Assembly (NCBI RefSeq): GCF_018599245.1
Contig: NZ_JAHEVJ010000010.1
Location: forward strand, 1 to 64,000
Length of the DNA stretch: 64,000 bases
DNA from: Aliiroseovarius lamellibrachiae
Lineage (GTDB): Bacteria; Pseudomonadota; Alphaproteobacteria; Rhodobacterales; Rhodobacteraceae
Direction: 5' to 3'
Position 1 is the first letter of the stretch; each line of letters begins with the position of its first letter. The notes beneath the pieces were generated by a model. That model was not told where the DNA came from, did no database searches, and saw only the letters and a list, made by a program, of their open reading frames with translations. Of this stretch, positions 45,702-55,144 are shown in pieces. The translations under genes and the position numbers were made by a program.

Positions 45702-46079
45702 CGAGCATCCTTTCGTGGGGGGCTTTGCCTAATGTGGCACGCCTTTAACCTGAGATGGGGAAAGGGAGAAACGCCACGAAATCCAGCAACATGTGGACGT
45801 TCTGTCACAAACCAGTGTTTCAAGGTCATGACGAAACGCTTTAACCTGCGGGCGTGGGAACGTCCAGCGCGCAACCGACACCAAGGGTGTCTTTAAACGC
45901 GCAGGCCCCACATGGGATCGCGGCCCCCTCACCGAAAAAAATTCCAGAGATCCGCCAAATCGCAGAATTTGTTCCCAGACGGAAAATTCCGCGTAAACGC
46001 CCTCCCTATTCGCAACGCCCCGTTGAAGCCATCAAGGCTTTCCCCTAGCCTGCCCACAACAGACATAAGGGAGAGTTCC
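45702..46079. other. Leader region of metY
   Basis: No gene. There is a short GACACC-AA-GGGTGTC hairpin near 45879 and a long leader up to the metY ribosome site. I looked for the conserved core of the SAM-II and SAM/SAH riboswitches and did not find it; an unrecognised RNA element is possible. Confidence 0.4.
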
Positions 46080-47372
46080 ATGTCAGACGATCGCCAATTG
46101 GGCTTTGATACATTGCAAATTCATGCAGGCACCGAGCCTGATCCCGCGACCGGTGCCCGTCAGGTGCCGATTTATCAGACCACCGCCTATGTGTTCAAAG
46201 ATGCGGATCACGCGGCGCGTTTGTTTAATCTTGAGGAAGTGGGCTATATCTATTCCCGCCTGACCAACCCCACCGTGGCCGCATTGCAAAACCGCATTGC
46301 CGCACTCGAGGGGGGGGCTGGTGCCGTGTGCTGCTCGTCTGGACATGCCGCGCAAATTATGGCGCTGTTTCCGCTGATGGGCCCCGGGCTGAATATCGTT
46401 GCGTCGAACAAGCTTTATGGCGGCACTGTCACCCAGTTCACACAAACATTCAAACGGTTCGGCTGGTCGGCTAAACTGGTTGATTTCGACGACCCCGCCG
46501 CGGTTGAGGCGGCAATCGACGACAACACGCGCGCGCTGTTCTGCGAAAGCCTTGCCAACCCTGCCGGCGTGCCAACCGATATTCCAGCAATGGCCGCGAT
46601 TGCCGACAAAGCCGGTGTGCCACTGGTTGTCGACAACACCGCCGCTACGCCGTATCTGTGCAACCCCATTGAAATGGGGGCGACTTTGGTGGTGCATTCC
46701 ACCACTAAATATTTGACAGGCAATGGCACCGTAACCGGCGGCGCAATTGTGGACAGCGGCAAGTTTGACTGGATGGCCTCGGACAAGTTTCCATCGCTCA
46801 GTCAACCCGAACCGGCCTATCACGGCATCACTTTTGGCGCAGCACTTGGCCCGATGGCCTATACGTTCCACGGCATCGCCATTGGCCTACGCGACCTTGG
46901 CATGACCATGAACCCGCAAGCCGCACATTACACGCTGATGGGGATTGAAACCCTGTCATTGCGCATGGAAAAACACGTTGAGAACGCGCAACAAGTGGCG
47001 GAATGGCTGGAAGCCGACCCCCGAATTGACAGTGTGTCCTATGCGGGCCTTGCCTCGTCGCCGTATCATGCGCGCGGCAAAGAGCTGTTTCCGAAAGGCG
47101 CGGGTGCGTTGTTCACAGTCGGCGTAAAGGGCGGATATGACGCCTGCGTTAAGCTGGTCGACAGCCTGAAGCTGTTCAGCCATGTGGCCAACCTTGGCGA
47201 CACCCGTTCGCTGATCATTCACTCCGCTTCCACCACCCACCGCCAACTGTCGCCAGAACAGCAAGAGGCCGCAGGCGCGGGTGCAAATGTGGTGCGCATT
47301 TCCATCGGAACTGAGAACGCAGCGGACATCATCGCCGATCTGGATCAGGCGCTGACCGCGGCAACCGCATAA
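46080..47372 (+). CDS. metY: O-acetylhomoserine aminocarboxypropyltransferase
   Basis: A 430-residue PLP enzyme making homocysteine from O-acetylhomoserine and sulfide. Marks: GFDTLQIHAGTEPDPATGAR, YSRLTNPTVAALQNRIAALEG, VVDNTAATPYLCNPIEMGA, the PLP Lys in VVHSTTKYLTGNGT and LGDTRSLIIHSASTTHRQL. The ATG at 46080 has AAGGGAGAG upstream. It was followed by a terminator whose two halves are now 4.2 kb apart because of the transposon at 47407. Confidence 0.95.
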   Translation: MSDDRQLGFDTLQIHAGTEPDPATGARQVPIYQTTAYVFKDADHAARLFNLEEVGYIYSRLTNPTVAALQNRIAALEGGAGAVCCSSGHAAQIMALFPLMGPGLNIVASNKLYGGTVTQFTQTFKRFGWSAKLVDFDDPAAVEAAIDDNTRALFCESLANPAGVPTDIPAMAAIADKAGVPLVVDNTAATPYLCNPIEMGATLVVHSTTKYLTGNGTVTGGAIVDSGKFDWMASDKFPSLSQPEPAYHGITFGAALGPMAYTFHGIAIGLRDLGMTMNPQAAHYTLMGIETLSLRMEKHVENAQQVAEWLEADPRIDSVSYAGLASSPYHARGKELFPKGAGALFTVGVKGGYDACVKLVDSLKLFSHVANLGDTRSLIIHSASTTHRQLSPEQQEAAGAGANVVRISIGTENAADIIADLDQALTAATA

Positions 47373-47387
47373 GTTTACACCAAACCA

Positions 47388-47397
47388 AAAATGGCCG
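47388..47397 (+). terminator. Left half of the interrupted metY terminator
   Basis: AAAATGGCCG here pairs with CGGCCATTTT at 51605-51614. When the transposon and one target copy are removed they form a 10-bp stem with an 11-nt loop followed by TTTTATTTC, a standard Rho-independent terminator 15 bp after metY. Confidence 0.8.
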
Positions 47398-47406
47398 TCT
47401 ATTTAT

Positions 47407-47435
47407 TGGCGCATTCCGGATTTTGGGACACAAAA
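47407..47435 (+). repeat. Left terminal inverted repeat of the transposon
   Basis: 29 bp identical, but for one base, to the reverse complement of 51565-51593. Confidence 0.9.
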
Positions 47436-47463
47436 AGACCTCGGCAAAAATATGCCGAGGTCT
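47436..47463. terminator. Hairpin terminator inside the left end
   Basis: AGACCTCGGCA and TGCCGAGGTCT enclose a 6-nt A-rich loop. It lies 31 bp beyond the stop of the nuclease gene and also faces read-through from metY. Confidence 0.8.
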
Positions 47464-47493
47464 CTCTATTTCTTAGGCATGATTTGAATCAGC

Positions 47494-48861
47494 TTAGATT
47501 TCAGCGGGAAGCTCTTCCGCATCTTTATTGTTTGCTTCCATTAGCTTCTCCTTTCTCCGCGCCATTGTTTCATGCCATTCCTGAGCTTCACGGTCTGTGA
47601 AAAAATCAGCGTCGGGAGCAAGCCTGATTACCGCACTTTCTACCTCATCAAGTGAAACTCGGAAAAATTCTTTTCGCATGTTCGCCATATTCACACGCTT
47701 TTCCGCAAACTCTTTATGGAGAGCTCCCTCCAATGCTGGGGCCTCCTCCGAATAGATCATCGCATGAGTGTCAAAGGTGAAAGGAACACTGGCATCGCCC
47801 AACTCCCGAACGCGATCATTGGGGTCCAGGCGTCGGGTCAAGCCAATTTTGACCATGTCCTCTCCGAAGGAGCCGATATTTGAGATGACATAGACATAGC
47901 CAGACCTGGTCATTTCGGCCATAGCACGCGCCCTTTCGCTCGTGGCGTGAGCTTGCTCCAATGCGGCTTCAAGTTCTTGAAGCTTCTTTTGCATGGCCTC
48001 GCTGGTCTCGCCAACGTCTGCTTCTTTCCGAGCTTTTTCGAGAAGCGCTTGATACTTCTGCACCTCTTTCTCAGCAGCCCGAGCTTCCGCGAGGAGTTTC
48101 TTTTCTTCTCTTTCCGCCCTGGCGAGTTCTGCCCGCTCATCTTTTTCGATTTTCATCTGCTCGCGGTATTCATGGGTCAGATGCAGTTCATCAATTTTCA
48201 TCGCCACATAGTCATCATTGATGTCGAGATTCATTGAGGTGTTCTCTTTCGAGATCGCTTTGGCGGCATTCAAAATCCGCTTTTCCATTGCAACCACATT
48301 GTTCCAACGCGTGTTGGCAATCGCGGCCTCGCACTCATTGTTAAAAGCTCGCATGGTCAATCGGGTTTGACGGTTGATCATTGTTTGCCCTTTTGCGCGA
48401 CTACCTTCGACGGTCCAATCTGTCGGGCAAATTGTTGCTTCCCTGGCCGATACCATCGCTTTCTCGCGGGCCCGGATTTCTTTGATCTGGTCCTTATAGG
48501 TTTCGCTATCACCAAAATCAAAATGTGGCTCATAGACACCGAGTTCTGCAATAGCCAATCGGTCGTCATAGACTGCAACCTGTTCCTTCAATTGGTCAAG
48601 CAGCTTGCGCTTCTCCGCATATGATGCCCGCGTTTTCTGAATGCCACCTTCAAGCTCGACAGCATCCCTCTGCAAGCGTTCGACTTCAGTTTCGATGGAT
48701 GTAATCGCTGAATATTTTGTCTTGAGATTGCCCAACTCTTCATCAACTGCTTCGGCTTCTTTCGATGCTTTTGCCAGCTTCTTTCGGGCCAAGATCCATA
48801 GAATGAAAAATAGAGGAGCACTGAAAAACCAGAGCAATGCGATGATAGTATAAGGGTCCAT
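47494..48861 (-). CDS. Membrane-anchored DUF4041/GIY-YIG nuclease (SNIPE-like anti-phage protein)
   Basis: 455 residues from ATG 48861 (AAGGAAC upstream). An N-terminal membrane helix (about 4-25) is followed by a coiled coil (about 28-100), a DUF4041 domain (about 105-235, IAELGVYEPHFDFGDSETYK and the TICPTDWTVEGSR segment), a charged coiled coil (about 235-335) and a T5orf172-type GIY-YIG nuclease (about 335-430). Nuclease residues seen: YVYVISN, KIGLTRR, Arg in DRVREL, Glu in ALEGALHKEF and Asn before KEFFRV. The same architecture defines SNIPE, a membrane nuclease that cuts phage DNA as it is injected. It is cargo of the transposon and looks intact. Confidence 0.85.
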   Translation of the reverse strand: MDPYTIIALLWFFSAPLFFILWILARKKLAKASKEAEAVDEELGNLKTKYSAITSIETEVERLQRDAVELEGGIQKTRASYAEKRKLLDQLKEQVAVYDDRLAIAELGVYEPHFDFGDSETYKDQIKEIRAREKAMVSAREATICPTDWTVEGSRAKGQTMINRQTRLTMRAFNNECEAAIANTRWNNVVAMEKRILNAAKAISKENTSMNLDINDDYVAMKIDELHLTHEYREQMKIEKDERAELARAEREEKKLLAEARAAEKEVQKYQALLEKARKEADVGETSEAMQKKLQELEAALEQAHATSERARAMAEMTRSGYVYVISNIGSFGEDMVKIGLTRRLDPNDRVRELGDASVPFTFDTHAMIYSEEAPALEGALHKEFAEKRVNMANMRKEFFRVSLDEVESAVIRLAPDADFFTDREAQEWHETMARRKEKLMEANNKDAEELPAEI

Positions 48862-49069
48862 AAAAGTTCCTTTTTCGCAAATTGAATTGAAAAGCCACAC
48901 TCCTGCACAGCTCATAGGGTAGTTGTGGCTTTGCGGCGTCGCAAACAACAATTTCCCTGGATCGCGCTAATCCAACAACCTCAACAAAAAGGATTTTTAC
49001 CGTGTCTCGAACTTCTTCCAGAGCGGTGTTCCGTGATACAGCCACGGCCTATAAAGGATGCGCCGTGGA
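48862..49069. promoter_or_regulatory. Gap between transposase remnant and nuclease gene
   Basis: 208 bp upstream of the nuclease gene, presumably with its promoter. I see no convincing -10/-35 pair beyond AT-rich patches and no gene. Confidence 0.4.
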
Positions 49070-51388
49070 TCACGGGGTGGCACGAGTGGTCGGTGTCATC
49101 CTACGCGCATCAGCTCCCAACCTCAGCGCTGGCGTGCTTTGGACCGGTGCCAGCTTTCTTTGCTTGGGTGCTTTGACTTTCACCTTTGACCCAGGGTGCC
49201 GGATTGACTGCGTCCCGCTTGATACCGCGACCTGATTGGAACTCCTTGCGGAAGCACTCGAATAGGGGCGCACTTCGAACCAGTTATAGTAGATGCGATA
49301 GATGGTTAGGAACGCCACTAAGACTGCAGGATTGTAAGTAGCGCCGTTAATGTAGCTTGGGCCATTTCGAGCGGATCTTCCTCCAGCCCTTTTGGTGGGA
49401 CTAACCCTCTCACGGAGAGAATTCATGAAGCTTGAGACCGGGTGGATAGTTGCTTTGATGTATCGGCGAGCAAGTGCATCGCAGAGATCTGCGTCTGTAG
49501 GCATTACATGAAATGCACTGCGTTTTAGTTTCTGCCGATATTTCTTTCGAATGACAGGAAAGCCAACGACTTTCCGCGTCTCCCCATGGATTTCCATGCC
49601 AGACTTGACCCATAGCTGGGGAAACTGCGCAGACCGGAAATTGGTGATTGGGAATGGTGTCATATGGCTCGTGGGATCACGACTGAAGGCAGGAACCATT
49701 GTGCTGGCGCAATACTGAGACAGGAGCGCGTAATCAGATGTTTGTGTCTGCCCGGACGCATGCGCGCGCCTTGAAGACATCGAGAGCTGTTTTGAATGCC
49801 GTTGCTCTGCGGGAGTTTTCGGGCTCCGAGGCATTTTTGTCGAAATGCATGACATGCCATTCGAAACGGTCTTCTTCGATCCAATCGCGGAAAATGTGCG
49901 GCACGACCCGAACCATGGTTGCTTCTTGCTCACCAACGATTGTCAGGCGCTTAGCAGGCAATAGATCACGAAGACACGCCAGGTGGGCGGCCTTTGTGTA
50001 TGTTGGCTTCACAACAGATCCATTGAAACTCCCGCGGGAATCGCGGTCTGTTTCCTGAAAGCTGAAATATCCATTGCGCAAAGTATTGATGATTTTCCTA
50101 TGCTCGTTTGCATTGGCAATCTCATCCAGTGCATCCTGTGGAAGTTGGGTCAACCCTTGGGCTGCATATGCCTTGTCGAGCCTTTGACTGAAGACACGCC
50201 AATGGCTTTCAGCACTGGCAAACAGTGCGGCTTCTTCGTATCGCCCTGTTGGTCTTTGGAAATGCATTGATGGAACGGTAAAATTGTGCCCGGATTTCTG
50301 TGCATAGGCCTGTCGCACATTGGTGGGCATCAGTTGGTCGTCCAGGTAATTCTCCTGAACTGCCTGAACTGGGTCGACCGTTGTGTCGAAATTTGCATCT
50401 ATGCGAAACACATAGCCTGTGTCGATATCGGCACTGACGGAGCACTGCAGAGGGGTCAGGCGTCGATCGGAGCGGCTTTCCCAATTGACGCTGATAACAA
50501 CATCATCATGGGCAATTCGCATGTGAGGGTGGCCACCCTGTGCTTCGCTCTTGTCCCTCCATTCTTTCAGCTTCGCCCGCTCAAACGCCAACAGTGTTTT
50601 TTCCAGCCAGAATATCCTGTTATAAACACGCTCAACCCCGCATTTCTTACTCGTGTCTGGATCAGCCAACAGCTTCCTCAGAGCGGAGATACCGGCACCA
50701 TTGACCAACGCGCGCAGCAGTCTGACATTGTCATGCATTTTTTCCTGCTGTTGGTGATCAACGGATACTGAAAAACGTGCACCCGCTTTGCCCTTGCAAG
50801 GCTTGTGAATAACTCTGAATCCAGCTGGCTTTGCTTTGCGCCCGTTCTTTCCGGCGGGGATCTTCCCATGGGCGCCATTGAAAATGAAGTCGCCCGGCTG
50901 TTCGAGATATCTTGCGCCGCAGTGGCCGCAAACTGGGCCTTCCAGAACCCCGTTTGAGTGATCAGTCGGCCAAACTCTGACTCGAAGTGTTTGTTCGAAA
51001 GAACATTGAAAGATACGTCGCAGTCGTGATTGTCCTGCAGGTGATGGCATACCAGAGACTTCCCATCTTCCCACTGCCGAGCATCCTTCGAGTATTCGAG
51101 GGCTGTTGAGACAACCTGAGAATCTTGGTCGCCAGTGATGGTGTATTTCCCTCTACCTTTGCCCAACGAAGGATTTGTCGCAAATGCCTTTTGCTTTCTC
51201 GCCTGAGCGTTTCTACCTACGAAGGATTGGTAGATGAAGTCAGGCGCAATACCGTAGTTCCCGCAGTCGGGATCGCCACAGCAGTTGAGGTTGATTGTAT
51301 CCCCGATTTCAGGGTAGATTTGAGGAAGAGACAGTTTGGGCACGGACTTCACAGCGACACAGCCTTTCGTTCTGTTTCGTTTGGTCAA
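49070..51388 (-). pseudogene. Frameshifted zinc-finger DDE-type transposase
   Basis: One protein in three pieces. Piece 1 (from 51388) has a Cys finger (NCCGDPDCGNYG) and CHHLQDNHDCDVSF. Near 50960 a missing base moves the reading to a second frame, whose piece carries CGHCG, FIFNGAHGKIP and a catalytic-core-like strand (AHDDVVISVNWESR, SADIDTGYVFRIDANFD). Near 49740 an extra base returns it to the first frame: IRKKYRQKLKRSAF, SFMNSLRERVSPTKRAGGRS and a final helix (LVAFLTIYRIYYNWFEVRPY). The layout resembles DDE transposases and the gene spans most of the element, but I cannot name the IS family. The two shifts make it inactive unless they are sequencing errors. Confidence 0.7.
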
Positions 51389-51530
51389 GTCGCCCTCCGC
51401 CAGGCGGTGTTCATATTGGCCAACTCTCCCAAAACCAAAGACTTAACCGCATTTTTTTGAAAAGTGTGGCTCCGGGACTTTTCTCCCGGGCAATGAACAA
51501 TCTACTATCAGAAAAGACTGTTCAATATCA

Positions 51531-51562
51531 AACGCCTGCCGAGCGAAAACTCGACAGGCGTT
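51531..51562. terminator. Hairpin terminator inside the right end
   Basis: AACGCCTG and CAGGCGTT, with CGAG/CTCG further in, form a long stem around a short A-rich loop, followed on the plus strand by GCTTTT. It matches the terminator at the other end in position and shields the element from outside transcription. Confidence 0.7.
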
Positions 51563-51564
51563 GC

Positions 51565-51593
51565 TTTTGTGTCCCAAAATTCGGAATGCGCCA
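51565..51593 (-). repeat. Right terminal inverted repeat of the transposon
   Basis: Inverted copy of 47407-47435 with one mismatch. It is followed directly by the second TCTATTTAT target copy. Confidence 0.9.
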
Positions 51594-51604
51594 TCTATTT
51601 ATGG

Positions 51605-51619
51605 CGGCCATTTTATTTC
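51605..51619 (+). terminator. Right half of the interrupted metY terminator
   Basis: CGGCCATTTT and the run TTTTATTTC complete the stem begun at 47388. Confidence 0.8.
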
Positions 51620-51659
51620 AATGAGTTACGTTGTGAACTTAATCTCTCGACATCAATTA

Positions 51660-52037
51660 TTATGCCATTTGAACCTGCGCCGAAATCTCCGCGTTACCCG
51701 CTACAATCGGCATGTTTGATGCATCTGCCATACCGCGCACGCCCATGTTCGGCATTGCCCCAGACGACGGGACGAAAGACAGCACAGTAATCTTTCCCAG
51801 GGCCATCCCCGCCGCCATCCCAGCCGCCATCCCAGCCTCCGATGCCACGCCTACTGTCCTCTGACCGCAACCGCATCATTCGCGTCAAGCGCACGCCCAA
51901 TAGCGATCGCGCCATGTCTGGTGCGGCCGAGACACTGGCCCAGCCCGTGATCCGTAAGGTCGCAACCGCGCCTGCGAGCGCTGAAACAGACCCCAATGCG
52001 CAGCGAAAGTGGCAAAAATACCGAGTAATTTCTTCAT
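51660..52037 (-). pseudogene. Decayed SIMPL (DUF541)-like periplasmic protein gene
   Basis: ATG 52037 has AGGGACG upstream and starts MKKLLGIFATFAA, a signal peptide start. After about 13 codons the sense passes to another frame: GSVSALAGAVATLRITGWAS, VSAAPDMARSLLGVRL, as at the N-terminus of SIMPL-domain proteins. A third frame gives the C-terminal end (LGKITVLSFVPSSGAMPN, then ADASNMPIVAGNAEISAQVQ) and a stop at 51660. The middle part is missing (about 125 codons against about 230 in the family). It is a pseudogene with an internal deletion and frameshifts, next to the transposon insertion. Confidence 0.55.
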
Positions 52038-52261
52038 GTTACGTCCCTATTTTCCAGCAACTTGCGCCAATTGTCGCCCCATTCAATCGAAAGCCTCGCG
52101 CCCCCTTCCCATGGGCAAAATCCTGCTATAGTTTCAAAGCGGTGGCAGAAAGAATATGGCCAGGACATCTTTGGTGTGAACTGGTCGGGGTATGTGGCGC
52201 TGGGGCCTGCGCGGTTTGATCGTGTGTGTTTGGTTGCGGGAATTAGGAATGTGAGACGGGT

Positions 52262-55144
52262 ATGACGCCAAATTTTGCGCTTGATCTGACCCATGACGGT
52301 ATTGGCCTTTTGCATCGCAGCAAAGGGGGCTGGCTGCTGGCAGGAGAGGTTCGTCTGGACGACCCAGACCTGACCGCCCGCCTTGGCATGATGCGCCAAA
52401 CAGCAGTTGATCTGGAAAGCGGTGGGTTCACCAGCCAATTGATCGTCCCTGCGTCCGAGATCCTGTTCACGACAATGACAGCGCCCGGTCCCGATAACAT
52501 CACCCGAGAAGCGCGTATTCGCGAAGGGTTAGAGGGGCTGACCCCCTATCCGGTTGATGAGCTTCTGTTCGATTGGCACGCAGATGGCGACATGGCCCAT
52601 GTGGCGGTCATTGCCCGCGAAACCTTGGCCGAGGCCGAAGGGTTTGCACTTGATAACCGGTTGAACCCAGTGTGCTTTTGCGCGCGCGCCCATGGAAGTT
52701 TTGACCGGCAAGTCTATTTTGGCGCAACCTCCTGTGCGGATCAATTTTTGCGAAACGGCGCCAAAGTCGATCCAGATCGCCGCCCTATTCCGGCGTTGAT
52801 GGGCACAGGCGTCGCCACAATCGAACGCACAGAGATCGCCCCCACAGAGCCTGACGCAGCGCCCGGCGCACCCGACGCAAATGTCAAAGCATCACCTTCT
52901 CAGGCACTGAAAGGTGCCCCGGATGAAGAGGCAATACACCCGCCGCAAATGACGGCCTCGTCAAAATCGCCTGCGGTTCAATCCCCCTCGGATATGCCTG
53001 AACTTGCCCCTTTCCCTCCGGCATTTGAACCCGCAGATGACAGTGCTGAACCGGGCGCGCAACCCGCCCCTCTGGGCCGCCTGCCAAAAGCACCAAGCCT
53101 CACGTCGCCCGCTCACCAAAATGACGAGGCGGGCCAAAATGACGAGGCGGGAAAGACGGCCGACGCCCCTGTTGCCGCAGCTAAATTGGACAGCGCACAA
53201 AAGCCACCAGCCCCAGTCACGGGACCATCGCCTCGCACCCCAGCGGCCGCCGATGCCCCACCCGCGTTTTCGACACGGCGCAGCATTGACGCGCAGCCAG
53301 ACGCCAGCACAGATGCGCCCCTGCCCAGCCAAAGCATCGCACCGCGCATCCTTGTCGCCCCTCCAAGCTCAGGAAGTGATGTGGGGCGCCCGGCGCAACC
53401 GCAAAAACAGGCCCATGTTCCAGTCACCGCGCCAAATGTGGTCGGCAAGTCCGAGCGGTCGGCGGCGCCTGCCCCCACGAAGCGCGCCAAACAGGGCGCA
53501 CGAAAGCTGCAAGACGCCGCCCGCGCGGGGCTTGGAAAAGGATTAAGCAAAGGAATTTCAAGTGGCCTGGCCGGCGCAACAACAGCCGCCAGCGCCGCGT
53601 CTGCGTTGGCCAGTCGTACCGCGAGCGCCTTGCCCAAACGCCAAAAGGCCGCCGCACAGGAACACCCGATCGAAGACACCTCGGTCGCAGGCCCTATCCC
53701 CGGTGACATGCCGCCATCCCAATCGAGACCTCGGGGAGCGCACCACAAAACAACCGCAGCAAGTGCTGCAACAATCGAGGCCGACGCCCTCACCATATTT
53801 GGCGCTCGTGCCCAGCAGACTGTTGGTGGAAAGCCCAAATTCCTTGGTCTTTTCCTCGTGCTTGGCCTACTTTTGGTTTTGGCAATCGTTGCTGTTTGGT
53901 CGATGTTTTTTCTGTCCGACCAAAGCACGGGCCTGTTTCCCGGACGCGACGATCAGTTTGAAAGTGCAATCACAACCGGACCGGAGACTGGCACAGAGGA
54001 TCGCTTCGCCAGCCTGCCTGAATTTGACCCAGAGGGAGAGGATCGGTTCAGCGAGTTTGATCCTGATGCCCCGTCAGGTGCCGATACTGAGACAGACGCC
54101 AGCTTGGGTGAAGGTGATCCGCAGATACGACCTGAGCCTCTCTCGGCGGAAGCGGCAGAAACCCGATACGCGGCCACCGGAATATGGGAGCGCGCGCCAG
54201 ATCCGCTTACGGATCATGTCGTCGGGCGGCTTGACGGGCTGTATGTGGCCTCAATCGACCCCGTCACCTCGGGGCATGATGCGGTTGCCTTGCCCTCGGA
54301 CAAGTTGGCGGCGCTTGAAAACGCCCCAACGGAGCTTTTGGCCCCGCCGCCCAGCGGTACGCGATTTGATCTTGATGAACGCGGATTGGTTCGGGCAACG
54401 CCGCAGGGCAGTCTGACGCCAGAAGGGGTTTTGGTCATTGCCGGACGCCCCAGCGTGGTTCCCGCAGAACGGCCAGGGGATGATACGCAAGACACCGCGC
54501 CATTGGTGGAAAACACCGCCCCCAGCATTCGCCCCAAAAGCCGACCTGATGGGCTGATCGAAAGCAATGAGCGCGAGCTTTTTGGCGGACGGTCCCGCGT
54601 TGAAATGGCAGGCCTGCGTCCCAAACCGCGTCCACAGTCCATCGCAGCCTTGACACAGCAAGCCGCGGCGATTTTCGACGCCGTTGCCAACGCCGCAATT
54701 GATGACGCTGCCGCGGCGGCGGCGGCGGCGGTCACCGCGCCCACTCAGCTGGCTGTTACCCGGTCCCCCGAACCGAAGTCGCGCCCGCAAGGGTTTGATA
54801 AATTGATGGAAGCCGCCCGTGCAAAGGATGCCTCAGATGGATCTGTGGTTGTGGCCGCTGCCCCGCGCAATCAAACAGTCACCCCGGCCATTCCCACCCG
54901 TGCTTCGGTGGCAAAGCAAGCGACTGTTAAAAATGCCATTTCCCTTCGCAAAGTCAGTTTGATTGGCATCTATGGCAGTTCATCCAAGCGGCGCGCTTTG
55001 GTGCGTTTACCGTCGGGGCGATATGTAAAGGTTGGCATTGGGGATCGTTTAGATGGCGGCAAGGTGGTGTCAATTTCCGCAAGCAAACTGGTCTATAAAA
55101 AAGGCTCTCGGTCCAAAACATTGCAGGTCTTGCCGTTTAGCTAA
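52262..55144 (+). CDS. Large inner-membrane protein with GspL/PilM-like and GspC/PilP-like ends
   Basis: A 960-residue protein. Residues about 1-160 resemble the actin-like cytoplasmic part of GspL/PilM (FALDLTHDGIGLLHRSKGGW, ITREARIREGLEGLTPYPVD). Then about 360 residues are Pro/Ala/Asp-rich and disordered, a single membrane helix lies at about 525-550 ([17 protein letters not shown]), and another Pro/Ala-rich stretch with repeated KSRP/PKPRP motifs follows. The last about 65 residues (SLIGIYGSSSKRRALVRLPS, VGIGDRLDGGKVVSIS) look like the GspC/PilP periplasmic HR domain. It is conserved in Rhodobacterales but unassigned. No other secretion gene is near. Confidence 0.8.
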   Translation: MTPNFALDLTHDGIGLLHRSKGGWLLAGEVRLDDPDLTARLGMMRQTAVDLESGGFTSQLIVPASEILFTTMTAPGPDNITREARIREGLEGLTPYPVDELLFDWHADGDMAHVAVIARETLAEAEGFALDNRLNPVCFCARAHGSFDRQVYFGATSCADQFLRNGAKVDPDRRPIPALMGTGVATIERTEIAPTEPDAAPGAPDANVKASPSQALKGAPDEEAIHPPQMTASSKSPAVQSPSDMPELAPFPPAFEPADDSAEPGAQPAPLGRLPKAPSLTSPAHQNDEAGQNDEAGKTADAPVAAAKLDSAQKPPAPVTGPSPRTPAAADAPPAFSTRRSIDAQPDASTDAPLPSQSIAPRILVAPPSSGSDVGRPAQPQKQAHVPVTAPNVVGKSERSAAPAPTKRAKQGARKLQDAARAGLGKGLSKGISSGLAGATTAASAASALASRTASALPKRQKAAAQEHPIEDTSVAGPIPGDMPPSQSRPRGAHHKTTAASAATIEADALTIFGARAQQTVGGKPKFLGLFLVLGLLLVLAIVAVWSMFFLSDQSTGLFPGRDDQFESAITTGPETGTEDRFASLPEFDPEGEDRFSEFDPDAPSGADTETDASLGEGDPQIRPEPLSAEAAETRYAATGIWERAPDPLTDHVVGRLDGLYVASIDPVTSGHDAVALPSDKLAALENAPTELLAPPPSGTRFDLDERGLVRATPQGSLTPEGVLVIAGRPSVVPAERPGDDTQDTAPLVENTAPSIRPKSRPDGLIESNERELFGGRSRVEMAGLRPKPRPQSIAALTQQAAAIFDAVANAAIDDAAAAAAAAVTAPTQLAVTRSPEPKSRPQGFDKLMEAARAKDASDGSVVVAAAPRNQTVTPAIPTRASVAKQATVKNAISLRKVSLIGIYGSSSKRRALVRLPSGRYVKVGIGDRLDGGKVVSISASKLVYKKGSRSKTLQVLPFS

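What the first reader, a model, noticed from the sequence alone, without database searches (positions are those of the whole stretch)
47388..51619. SNIPE-like anti-phage nuclease carried on a 4.2-kb transposon that split the metY terminator
Seen: 29-bp terminal inverted repeats with one mismatch, an exact 9-bp target duplication (TCTATTTAT), one transposase gene and one intact cargo gene coding for a membrane helix, coiled coil, DUF4041 and GIY-YIG nuclease. Known: this domain order is that of SNIPE, a membrane nuclease that attacks phage DNA during entry (from memory). Removing the element restores a textbook terminator, AAAATGGCCG / CGGCCATTTT with a T run, behind metY, so insertion was in the loop of a terminator hairpin. 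A defence gene as the sole cargo of an IS-like unit, with its own terminator at each end, suggests a compact self-mobile defence module.
Basis: partly seen in the sequence, partly recalled or inferred. Interest (0 to 1): 0.88.

Follow-up and report, generated by a model that had tools for sequence, protein, structure and literature searches.

The report
Terminator-splitting transposon carrying SNIPE defence gene
A decayed mobile DNA element carrying a SNIPE-type anti-phage nuclease gene sits in the loop of a transcription-stop hairpin, and its relatives repeatedly sit in such hairpins while carrying other cargo, often defence genes.

Summary
In detail: a 4,187-bp element (47407-51593) with 29-bp ends, 9-bp duplication and an intact SNIPE (PD-lambda-1) homologue splits the metY terminator. 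In 19 of 19 other same-genus genomes with metY that terminator is whole. One correction: the transposase is broken in at least three places, so this copy is not self-mobile.

The larger point is the family. Its transposase matches no Pfam, PHROGs or NCBIfam model; distant relatives are weakly IS1-like. Of 32 loci inspected, 17 elements could be delimited. 14 of 17 sit on a terminator-like hairpin by a strict score that 0.1% of all control positions and 0.5% of intergenic ones reach; 16 of 17 pass this or an RNAfold test. Strong hairpins also lie just inside the ends (25 of 28 ends; controls 2.6%). Cargo is swapped whole: a relative 87% identical over the transposase carries CBASS instead. Other cargo includes DUF262-HEPN genes, a type I methylase remnant and non-defence genes (betaine-type transporter). 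Four near-identical 13.2-kb copies at four sites indicate recent movement.

Terminator-loop targeting by a DNA transposon is the surprising part. How it is achieved, and SNIPE's activity here, are inferred.

The parts
46077..47372 (+). metY-type gene (O-acetylhomoserine aminocarboxypropyltransferase) whose terminator was split; the ORF as listed starts at 45912, the likelier start near 46077 is by eye
   Evidence: TIGR01326 above cutoff, residues 65-481 of the 486-aa ORF
47388..47397 (+). left half of the metY terminator stem
   Evidence: fold of joined flanks; whole in 19 of 19 other same-genus genomes with metY
47398..47406 (+). 9-bp target duplication, left copy (in the terminator loop)
47407..47435 (+). 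left terminal inverted repeat
   Evidence: family consensus
47436..47463 (.). hairpin just inside the left end, followed by T run in the outward direction
47494..48861 (-). intact SNIPE (PD-lambda-1) homologue, 455 aa: hydrophobic N-terminal segment, coiled region, DUF4041, GIY-YIG-type T5orf172/MUG113 domain
49070..51388 (-). transposase gene, broken: pieces 50993-51388, about 49737-50954 and 49070-49801 in two frames, with an early end compared with L006
51532..51561 (.). hairpin just inside the right end, followed by GCTTTTG in the outward direction
51565..51593 (-). right terminal inverted repeat
51594..51602 (+). 9-bp target duplication, right copy
51605..51614 (+). right half of the metY terminator stem, with T-rich tail

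Best explanation
This is a decayed member of a cargo-carrying transposon family whose preferred target is the loop of intrinsic-terminator hairpins. Shown: ends, duplications, empty site, terminator-like sites across the family, hairpins inside the ends, and whole-cargo exchange between similar transposases. Inferred: (1) the transposase (DDE-type by its ends and duplications; catalytic residues not tested) recognises the palindromic shape of a terminator, as a cruciform or during transcription, and cuts with a 9-bp stagger across the loop; (2) the hairpins inside the ends stand in for the split terminator and insulate host and element; [quoted passage not shown] coli SNIPE. Here the transposase is dead and the nuclease gene intact, so selection on the cargo probably keeps it.
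For: 17 elements delimited of 32 loci inspected. 14 of 17 pass stem score >=18 plus A/T tract, against 0.097% of 138,831 flanking positions (13 of 16 without the window) and 0.49% of 22,094 intergenic positions. 15 of 17 have >=10 pairs by RNAfold, against 8.7% of 19,500 positions. 16 of 17 pass at least one. Ends were found without using hairpins. Empty site in 19 of 19 other genomes. End hairpins: score >=24 at 25 of 28 near-family ends, against 2.6% of 6,503 stretches. Window and L047: 87% identical over 2,596 bp, then only the last 24 bp shared. Four 13.2-kb copies, 95-98% identical where aligned, at four sites with exact 9-bp duplications. SNIPE.
Against: L040 fails both hairpin tests and L036 lies inside a transporter-like gene, passing only the strict one. 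15 of 32 loci were too decayed or cut to test; of single-ended ones L041's flank shows no terminator half by eye. Only 2 of 4 delimited distant relatives sit in terminators (1 of 4 by the automatic scores). The binomial test treats sites as independent. No transposition or defence was tested; no usable transposase model. Some end hairpins lack a U-tract.
Confidence: 0.8

Rival explanations
1. No targeting: insertions land anywhere, and those in terminators survive because they do not break genes.
For: Nearly all sites are at gene ends, where damage is small; survivorship cannot be excluded from genomes alone.
Against: Restricting controls to intergenic positions still gives only 0.49% of 22,094 passing, against 14 of 17 observed; the duplication is centred on the loop, not merely near the terminator.
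Confidence: 0.1
2. The transposase recognises a short sequence common in terminators (for example the GC-rich stem or the A/T tracts) rather than the hairpin shape or termination itself.
For: Terminator stems in these genomes are similar (GGCC/GGCGGCC-like), so sequence and shape are partly confounded.
Against: The duplicated 9-mers and the stems differ between sites, e.g. TCTATTTAT, CCAAAGGGC, AATAATTTG, ATCTCTGCG.
Confidence: 0.2
3. The hairpins inside the ends are not terminators but transposase-binding or anti-expression structures.
For: Several lack a U-tract and abut the repeat directly, e.g. the right ends of L005 and L076.
Against: In the window both face outwards and run into T-rich sequence; stem sequences differ between elements and ends.
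Confidence: 0.35
4. The SNIPE-like gene is an inactive passenger and not a working defence gene.
For: No activity test; homologues of this family in 6 other genomes were not in this transposon, so there is no evidence of co-adaptation.
Against: The ORF is intact while the transposase is broken; homologues of 62-69% identity over nearly full length occur in 4 other family genomes.
Confidence: 0.15

Closest known systems
SNIPE / PD-lambda-1 (PMC13190303: abstract and the sections on the nuclease, homologues and homologue methods read)
   Same: Order of N-terminal hydrophobic segment, DUF4041, GIY-YIG-type nuclease; PADLOC PD-Lambda-1 at 4.3e-172
   Different: Carried as single cargo of a small transposon; activity untested; target phages unknown
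IS1/IS1595-type insertion sequences
   Same: Distant relatives L086 and WOS74301.1 match NCBIfam transpos_IS1 at 1.2e-10 and 8e-6 over the N-terminal zinc/HTH part; 8-9-bp duplications are typical of IS1 (recalled)
   Different: Both are far below the curated cutoff; window-family transposases match no model, are about 800 aa, and carry cargo
Group IIC introns (PMC4424553, passages seen)
   Same: Insert at intrinsic transcriptional terminators
   Different: Retroelements; here a DNA element with inverted repeats and duplications, in the loop
TnGBS/ISLre2/ISKra4 Mutator-like elements (PMC3942029, passages seen)
   Same: DNA transposons reading a transcription signal to land between genes
   Different: Target sigma-A promoters; different transposases
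Tn7-like transposons with defence cargo (PMC8649781, passages seen)
   Same: Related transposons exchange unrelated cargo, including defence systems
   Different: Several core proteins there; here one transposase and a small element

Membership tests
SNIPE (PD-lambda-1) | Single gene matching the family profile over most of its length | tested here: met
   PDLC03977 residues 67-450, profile 95-486 of 496, 4.3e-172
SNIPE (PD-lambda-1) | N-terminal membrane segment | tested here: met
   Residues 6-24, mean hydropathy 2.51, next best beyond residue 60 is 0.85; no dedicated predictor available
SNIPE (PD-lambda-1) | DUF4041 | tested here: met
   PF13250, residues 168-222, 8.6e-16
SNIPE (PD-lambda-1) | C-terminal GIY-YIG nuclease domain | tested here: met
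   PF10544 4.9e-18 and PF13455 7.6e-16; Foldseek on a model of pLDDT 70.9 gave no significant match
SNIPE (PD-lambda-1) | Catalytic glutamate (E414 in E. coli SNIPE) | tested here: inconclusive
   A glutamate in the REFF-like motif (E398) is invariant in a 3-row alignment, but the E. coli protein was not aligned
SNIPE (PD-lambda-1) | Blocks siphophages by cutting injected DNA | not testable with these tools
   needs experiment
IS1/IS1595 superfamily | Transposase matches the family model | tested here: not met
   No NCBIfam or Pfam match for window pieces, L005 or L074; only distant relatives match, below cutoff
IS1/IS1595 superfamily | DDE catalytic residues | not tested
   No usable structure (pLDDT 29.7)
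Group IIC introns | Intron RNA and reverse transcriptase | tested here: not met
   No Rfam match at gathering score in 46500-52500; no reverse transcriptase match
CBASS (cargo of relative L005) | Effector, cyclase and E2-type gene together | tested here: met
   8.6e-93, 4.6e-131, 2.6e-56 in PADLOC; L047 cargo judged by 77% DNA identity only

The most novel reading that the evidence does not exclude
An undescribed transposase family recognises terminators by shape (an extruded cruciform, or the hairpin and paused polymerase at termination), inserts in the loop and hands the host replacement hairpins, giving a nearly harmless landing site through which anti-phage systems and other genes circulate as interchangeable modules; distant relatives outside the family partly do the same.
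Probability: 0.45. Interest if true: 0.88.

Novelty: new variant of a known kind. Interest (0 to 1): 0.78.

Why it matters
Defence genes are known to travel on prophages, plasmids and Tn7-like elements. This would add a small one-transposase carrier that lands where it does little damage. A DNA transposon that reads a terminator hairpin makes structure-guided transposition directly testable, and cargo of the family, such as the unknown protein in L075, gives candidate defence genes.

Tried and rejected
Transposase searches that gave nothing: Pfam (only sub-cutoff noise), PHROGs, NCBIfam for window-family proteins (12, 104; only sub-cutoff noise), PDB sequences, IMG/VR (43: 150 pattern matches, none confirmed), phage records (46), plasmids with the window piece (19). 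The transposase model was useless (pLDDT 29.7, six rows of which five were partial) and was not searched. Foldseek and PDB sequence search (106) of the SNIPE homologue gave no relevant match.

SNIPE homologues elsewhere: in 6 of 6 loci no end motif with 7 or fewer mismatches and no transposase match (one locus starts close to a contig end). Only 2 viral contigs encode relatives, 35% identical.

Distant relatives: of 6 tried, 4 could be delimited. Polaromonas and Acidovorax gave no ends, so the AAA/HNH genes beside the former are not claimed as cargo.

Defence enrichment is only roughly controlled. Of 12 near-family cargo proteins given to PADLOC 7 match at 1e-15. Not given: the cargo of L035, the L045 TetR gene, the transporter and LysR genes of L074, the acyl-CoA genes of L140, and L047's three genes. 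Of 59 flanking proteins at least 2 match at 1e-15 (25 of 65 matching families shown, nearly all restriction-modification, one mads_2).

Literature: ten searches; those aimed at terminator targeting are. None listed a DNA transposon described as targeting terminator loops, judged from listings, plus passages of PMC6382973. Only open-licence papers are held, so novelty is weakly supported.
Full report
Observation. The sequence is as described: 29-bp inverted repeats with one mismatch, an exact 9-bp duplication and terminator halves on both sides. The element is 47407-51593, 4,187 bp. The gene upstream is MetY-type. A direct empty site exists: of 21 same-genus genomes 20 matched metY (the one without a match is 56% complete), and in the 19 other than the window's own a whole hairpin with T run follows metY.

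Cargo. The ORF 47494-48861 (-) is intact, 455 aa. PADLOC PD-Lambda-1 matches at 4.3e-172; DUF4041 and T5orf172/MUG113 match above cutoffs; residues 6-24 are strongly hydrophobic. SNIPE is the new name of PD-lambda-1, a membrane nuclease that cuts phage DNA during injection (PMC13190303, abstract and three sections). In the family, 7 of 248 genomes match at 1e-30, own included; 4 others at 62-69% identity over nearly full length, 2 more partial. None of the six loci fetched holds this transposon. Function here is inferred.

Transposase. The window's gene is broken: three pieces lie in two frames and the last ends early compared with L006. L006's copy is frameshifted too. Single open frames of 787-827 aa exist in other genomes. 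The other copy in the same genome is decayed.

Family. Matches: 13 of 295 genomes drawn from the family, 17 of 390 from the order, all in the same family, only the own genome of 385 from the class, 3 of 398 from the phylum (own, one same-family, one distant), 6 of 21 in the genus, 1 of 54 in another genus; own included except, samples overlap. That the family is Rhodobacteraceae is inferred from the named records L005 and L006. I inspected 32 loci; 17 could be delimited by matching ends and duplication (9 bp in 15, one of them with one mismatch; 10 bp in L005, 8 bp in L036) and 15 were decayed or cut. End consensus: TGACGCATTCCGnnTTTTGGGACAC.

Target. By the strict score (ungapped stem >=18 around the duplication plus an A or T tract) 14 of 17 pass, against 0.097% of 138,831 flanking positions; 13 of 16 without the window; at >=22, 12 of 17 against 0.057%. 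Against intergenic positions only, 0.49% of 22,094 pass. By RNAfold 15 of 17 have at least 10 pairs, against 8.7% of 19,500 positions. L076 and the G1311 site pass only the RNAfold test, L036 only the strict one, L040 neither. L036 lies inside a transporter-like gene. Of single-ended loci not counted, L077 and L083 show A-tract half-terminators by eye, L041 does not. Four genomes of the window's genus carry elements of about 13.2 kb, 95-98% identical where aligned, at four sites with four different exact duplications.

End hairpins. Just inside the repeats a strong hairpin (score >=24) is found at 25 of 28 near-family ends, against 2.6% of 6,503 stretches; 6 of 8 ends of distant relatives (three of the four 13.2-kb copies were left out as near-duplicates). 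In the window both face outwards and run into T-rich sequence; some elsewhere lack a T run. I infer terminator replacement.

Cargo exchange. Window and L047 are 87% identical over 2,596 bp and then share only the last 24 bp, while L047 and L005 share their cargo at 77%. L005 carries CBASS genes. L036 carries a DUF262 gene (NsnA-like 1.3e-67; PD-T4-2_A 1.3e-42) and a RiboL-PSP HEPN gene; L039 a remnant of such a pair, its HEPN match just below cutoff; L044 an HsdM fragment. Not defence: L035 with metallo-hydrolase and MFS genes, LysR and GST-like by eye; L045 with a TetR gene; the 13.2-kb elements, read in L074/L140, with an OpuAC/ABC transporter, LysR, 3-hydroxyacyl-CoA dehydrogenase and thiolase genes. 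L075 has an unknown protein. L038 has no further ORF of note and L078 mainly other IS genes by eye; L040 and L076 are too short for much cargo, their ORFs not listed.

Distant relatives. L086/L153 and a P. aeruginosa plasmid protein match the IS1 family model weakly. Of four delimited, L148 and L153 fold as terminators, L151 and L152 do not; the automatic scores accept only L153, since L148's loop is off centre. L153 carries a D12 methylase and a NotI-like endonuclease.

Comparison. Group IIC introns insert at terminators (PMC4424553, passages), TnGBS-like elements at promoters (PMC3942029, passages), and Tn7-like elements carry defence cargo (PMC8649781, passages). The searches named under Tried and rejected listed no DNA transposon described as targeting terminator loops.

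Verdict. Right on SNIPE and the terminator, wrong on self-mobility. Terminator-loop sites with end hairpins and swapped cargo across a family is the part to follow.

Noticed in passing
L075:10984-11865: Sole cargo of an element with an intact-looking transposase: a 293-aa protein with an N-terminal hydrophobic stretch and no Pfam or PADLOC match; a candidate unknown defence gene.
   Followed up: partly
G000:C14:388151-391463 (L045:8152-11464): Second, decayed member in the same genome, 9-bp duplication AATAATTTG in a 15-pair terminator hairpin, with a TetR gene and an unknown 358-aa ORF.
   Followed up: partly
L074:8399 to L140:3627 and copies in G1306, G1307, G1311: 13.2-kb elements in four same-genus genomes carrying a betaine-type ABC transporter and acyl-CoA genes at four different terminators.
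   Followed up: partly
L149:8953-17354 (Polaromonas sp. JS666 plasmid 2): Distant transposase relative followed by a large AAA/Toprim gene (MkoC-like, 2.1e-157) and an HNH gene; element ends not found.
   Followed up: partly
plasmid records: Relatives of the distant transposase L086 occur on 131 plasmid records, 90 of Enterococcus, listed ones mostly annotated as hypothetical or insertion element protein; targets and cargo not examined beyond the six loci.
   Followed up: no
window 51589-51606: The right junction (repeat tip, duplication, host stem) itself forms a 6-pair hairpin with a T-rich tail, so a small terminator may be rebuilt there.
   Followed up: no
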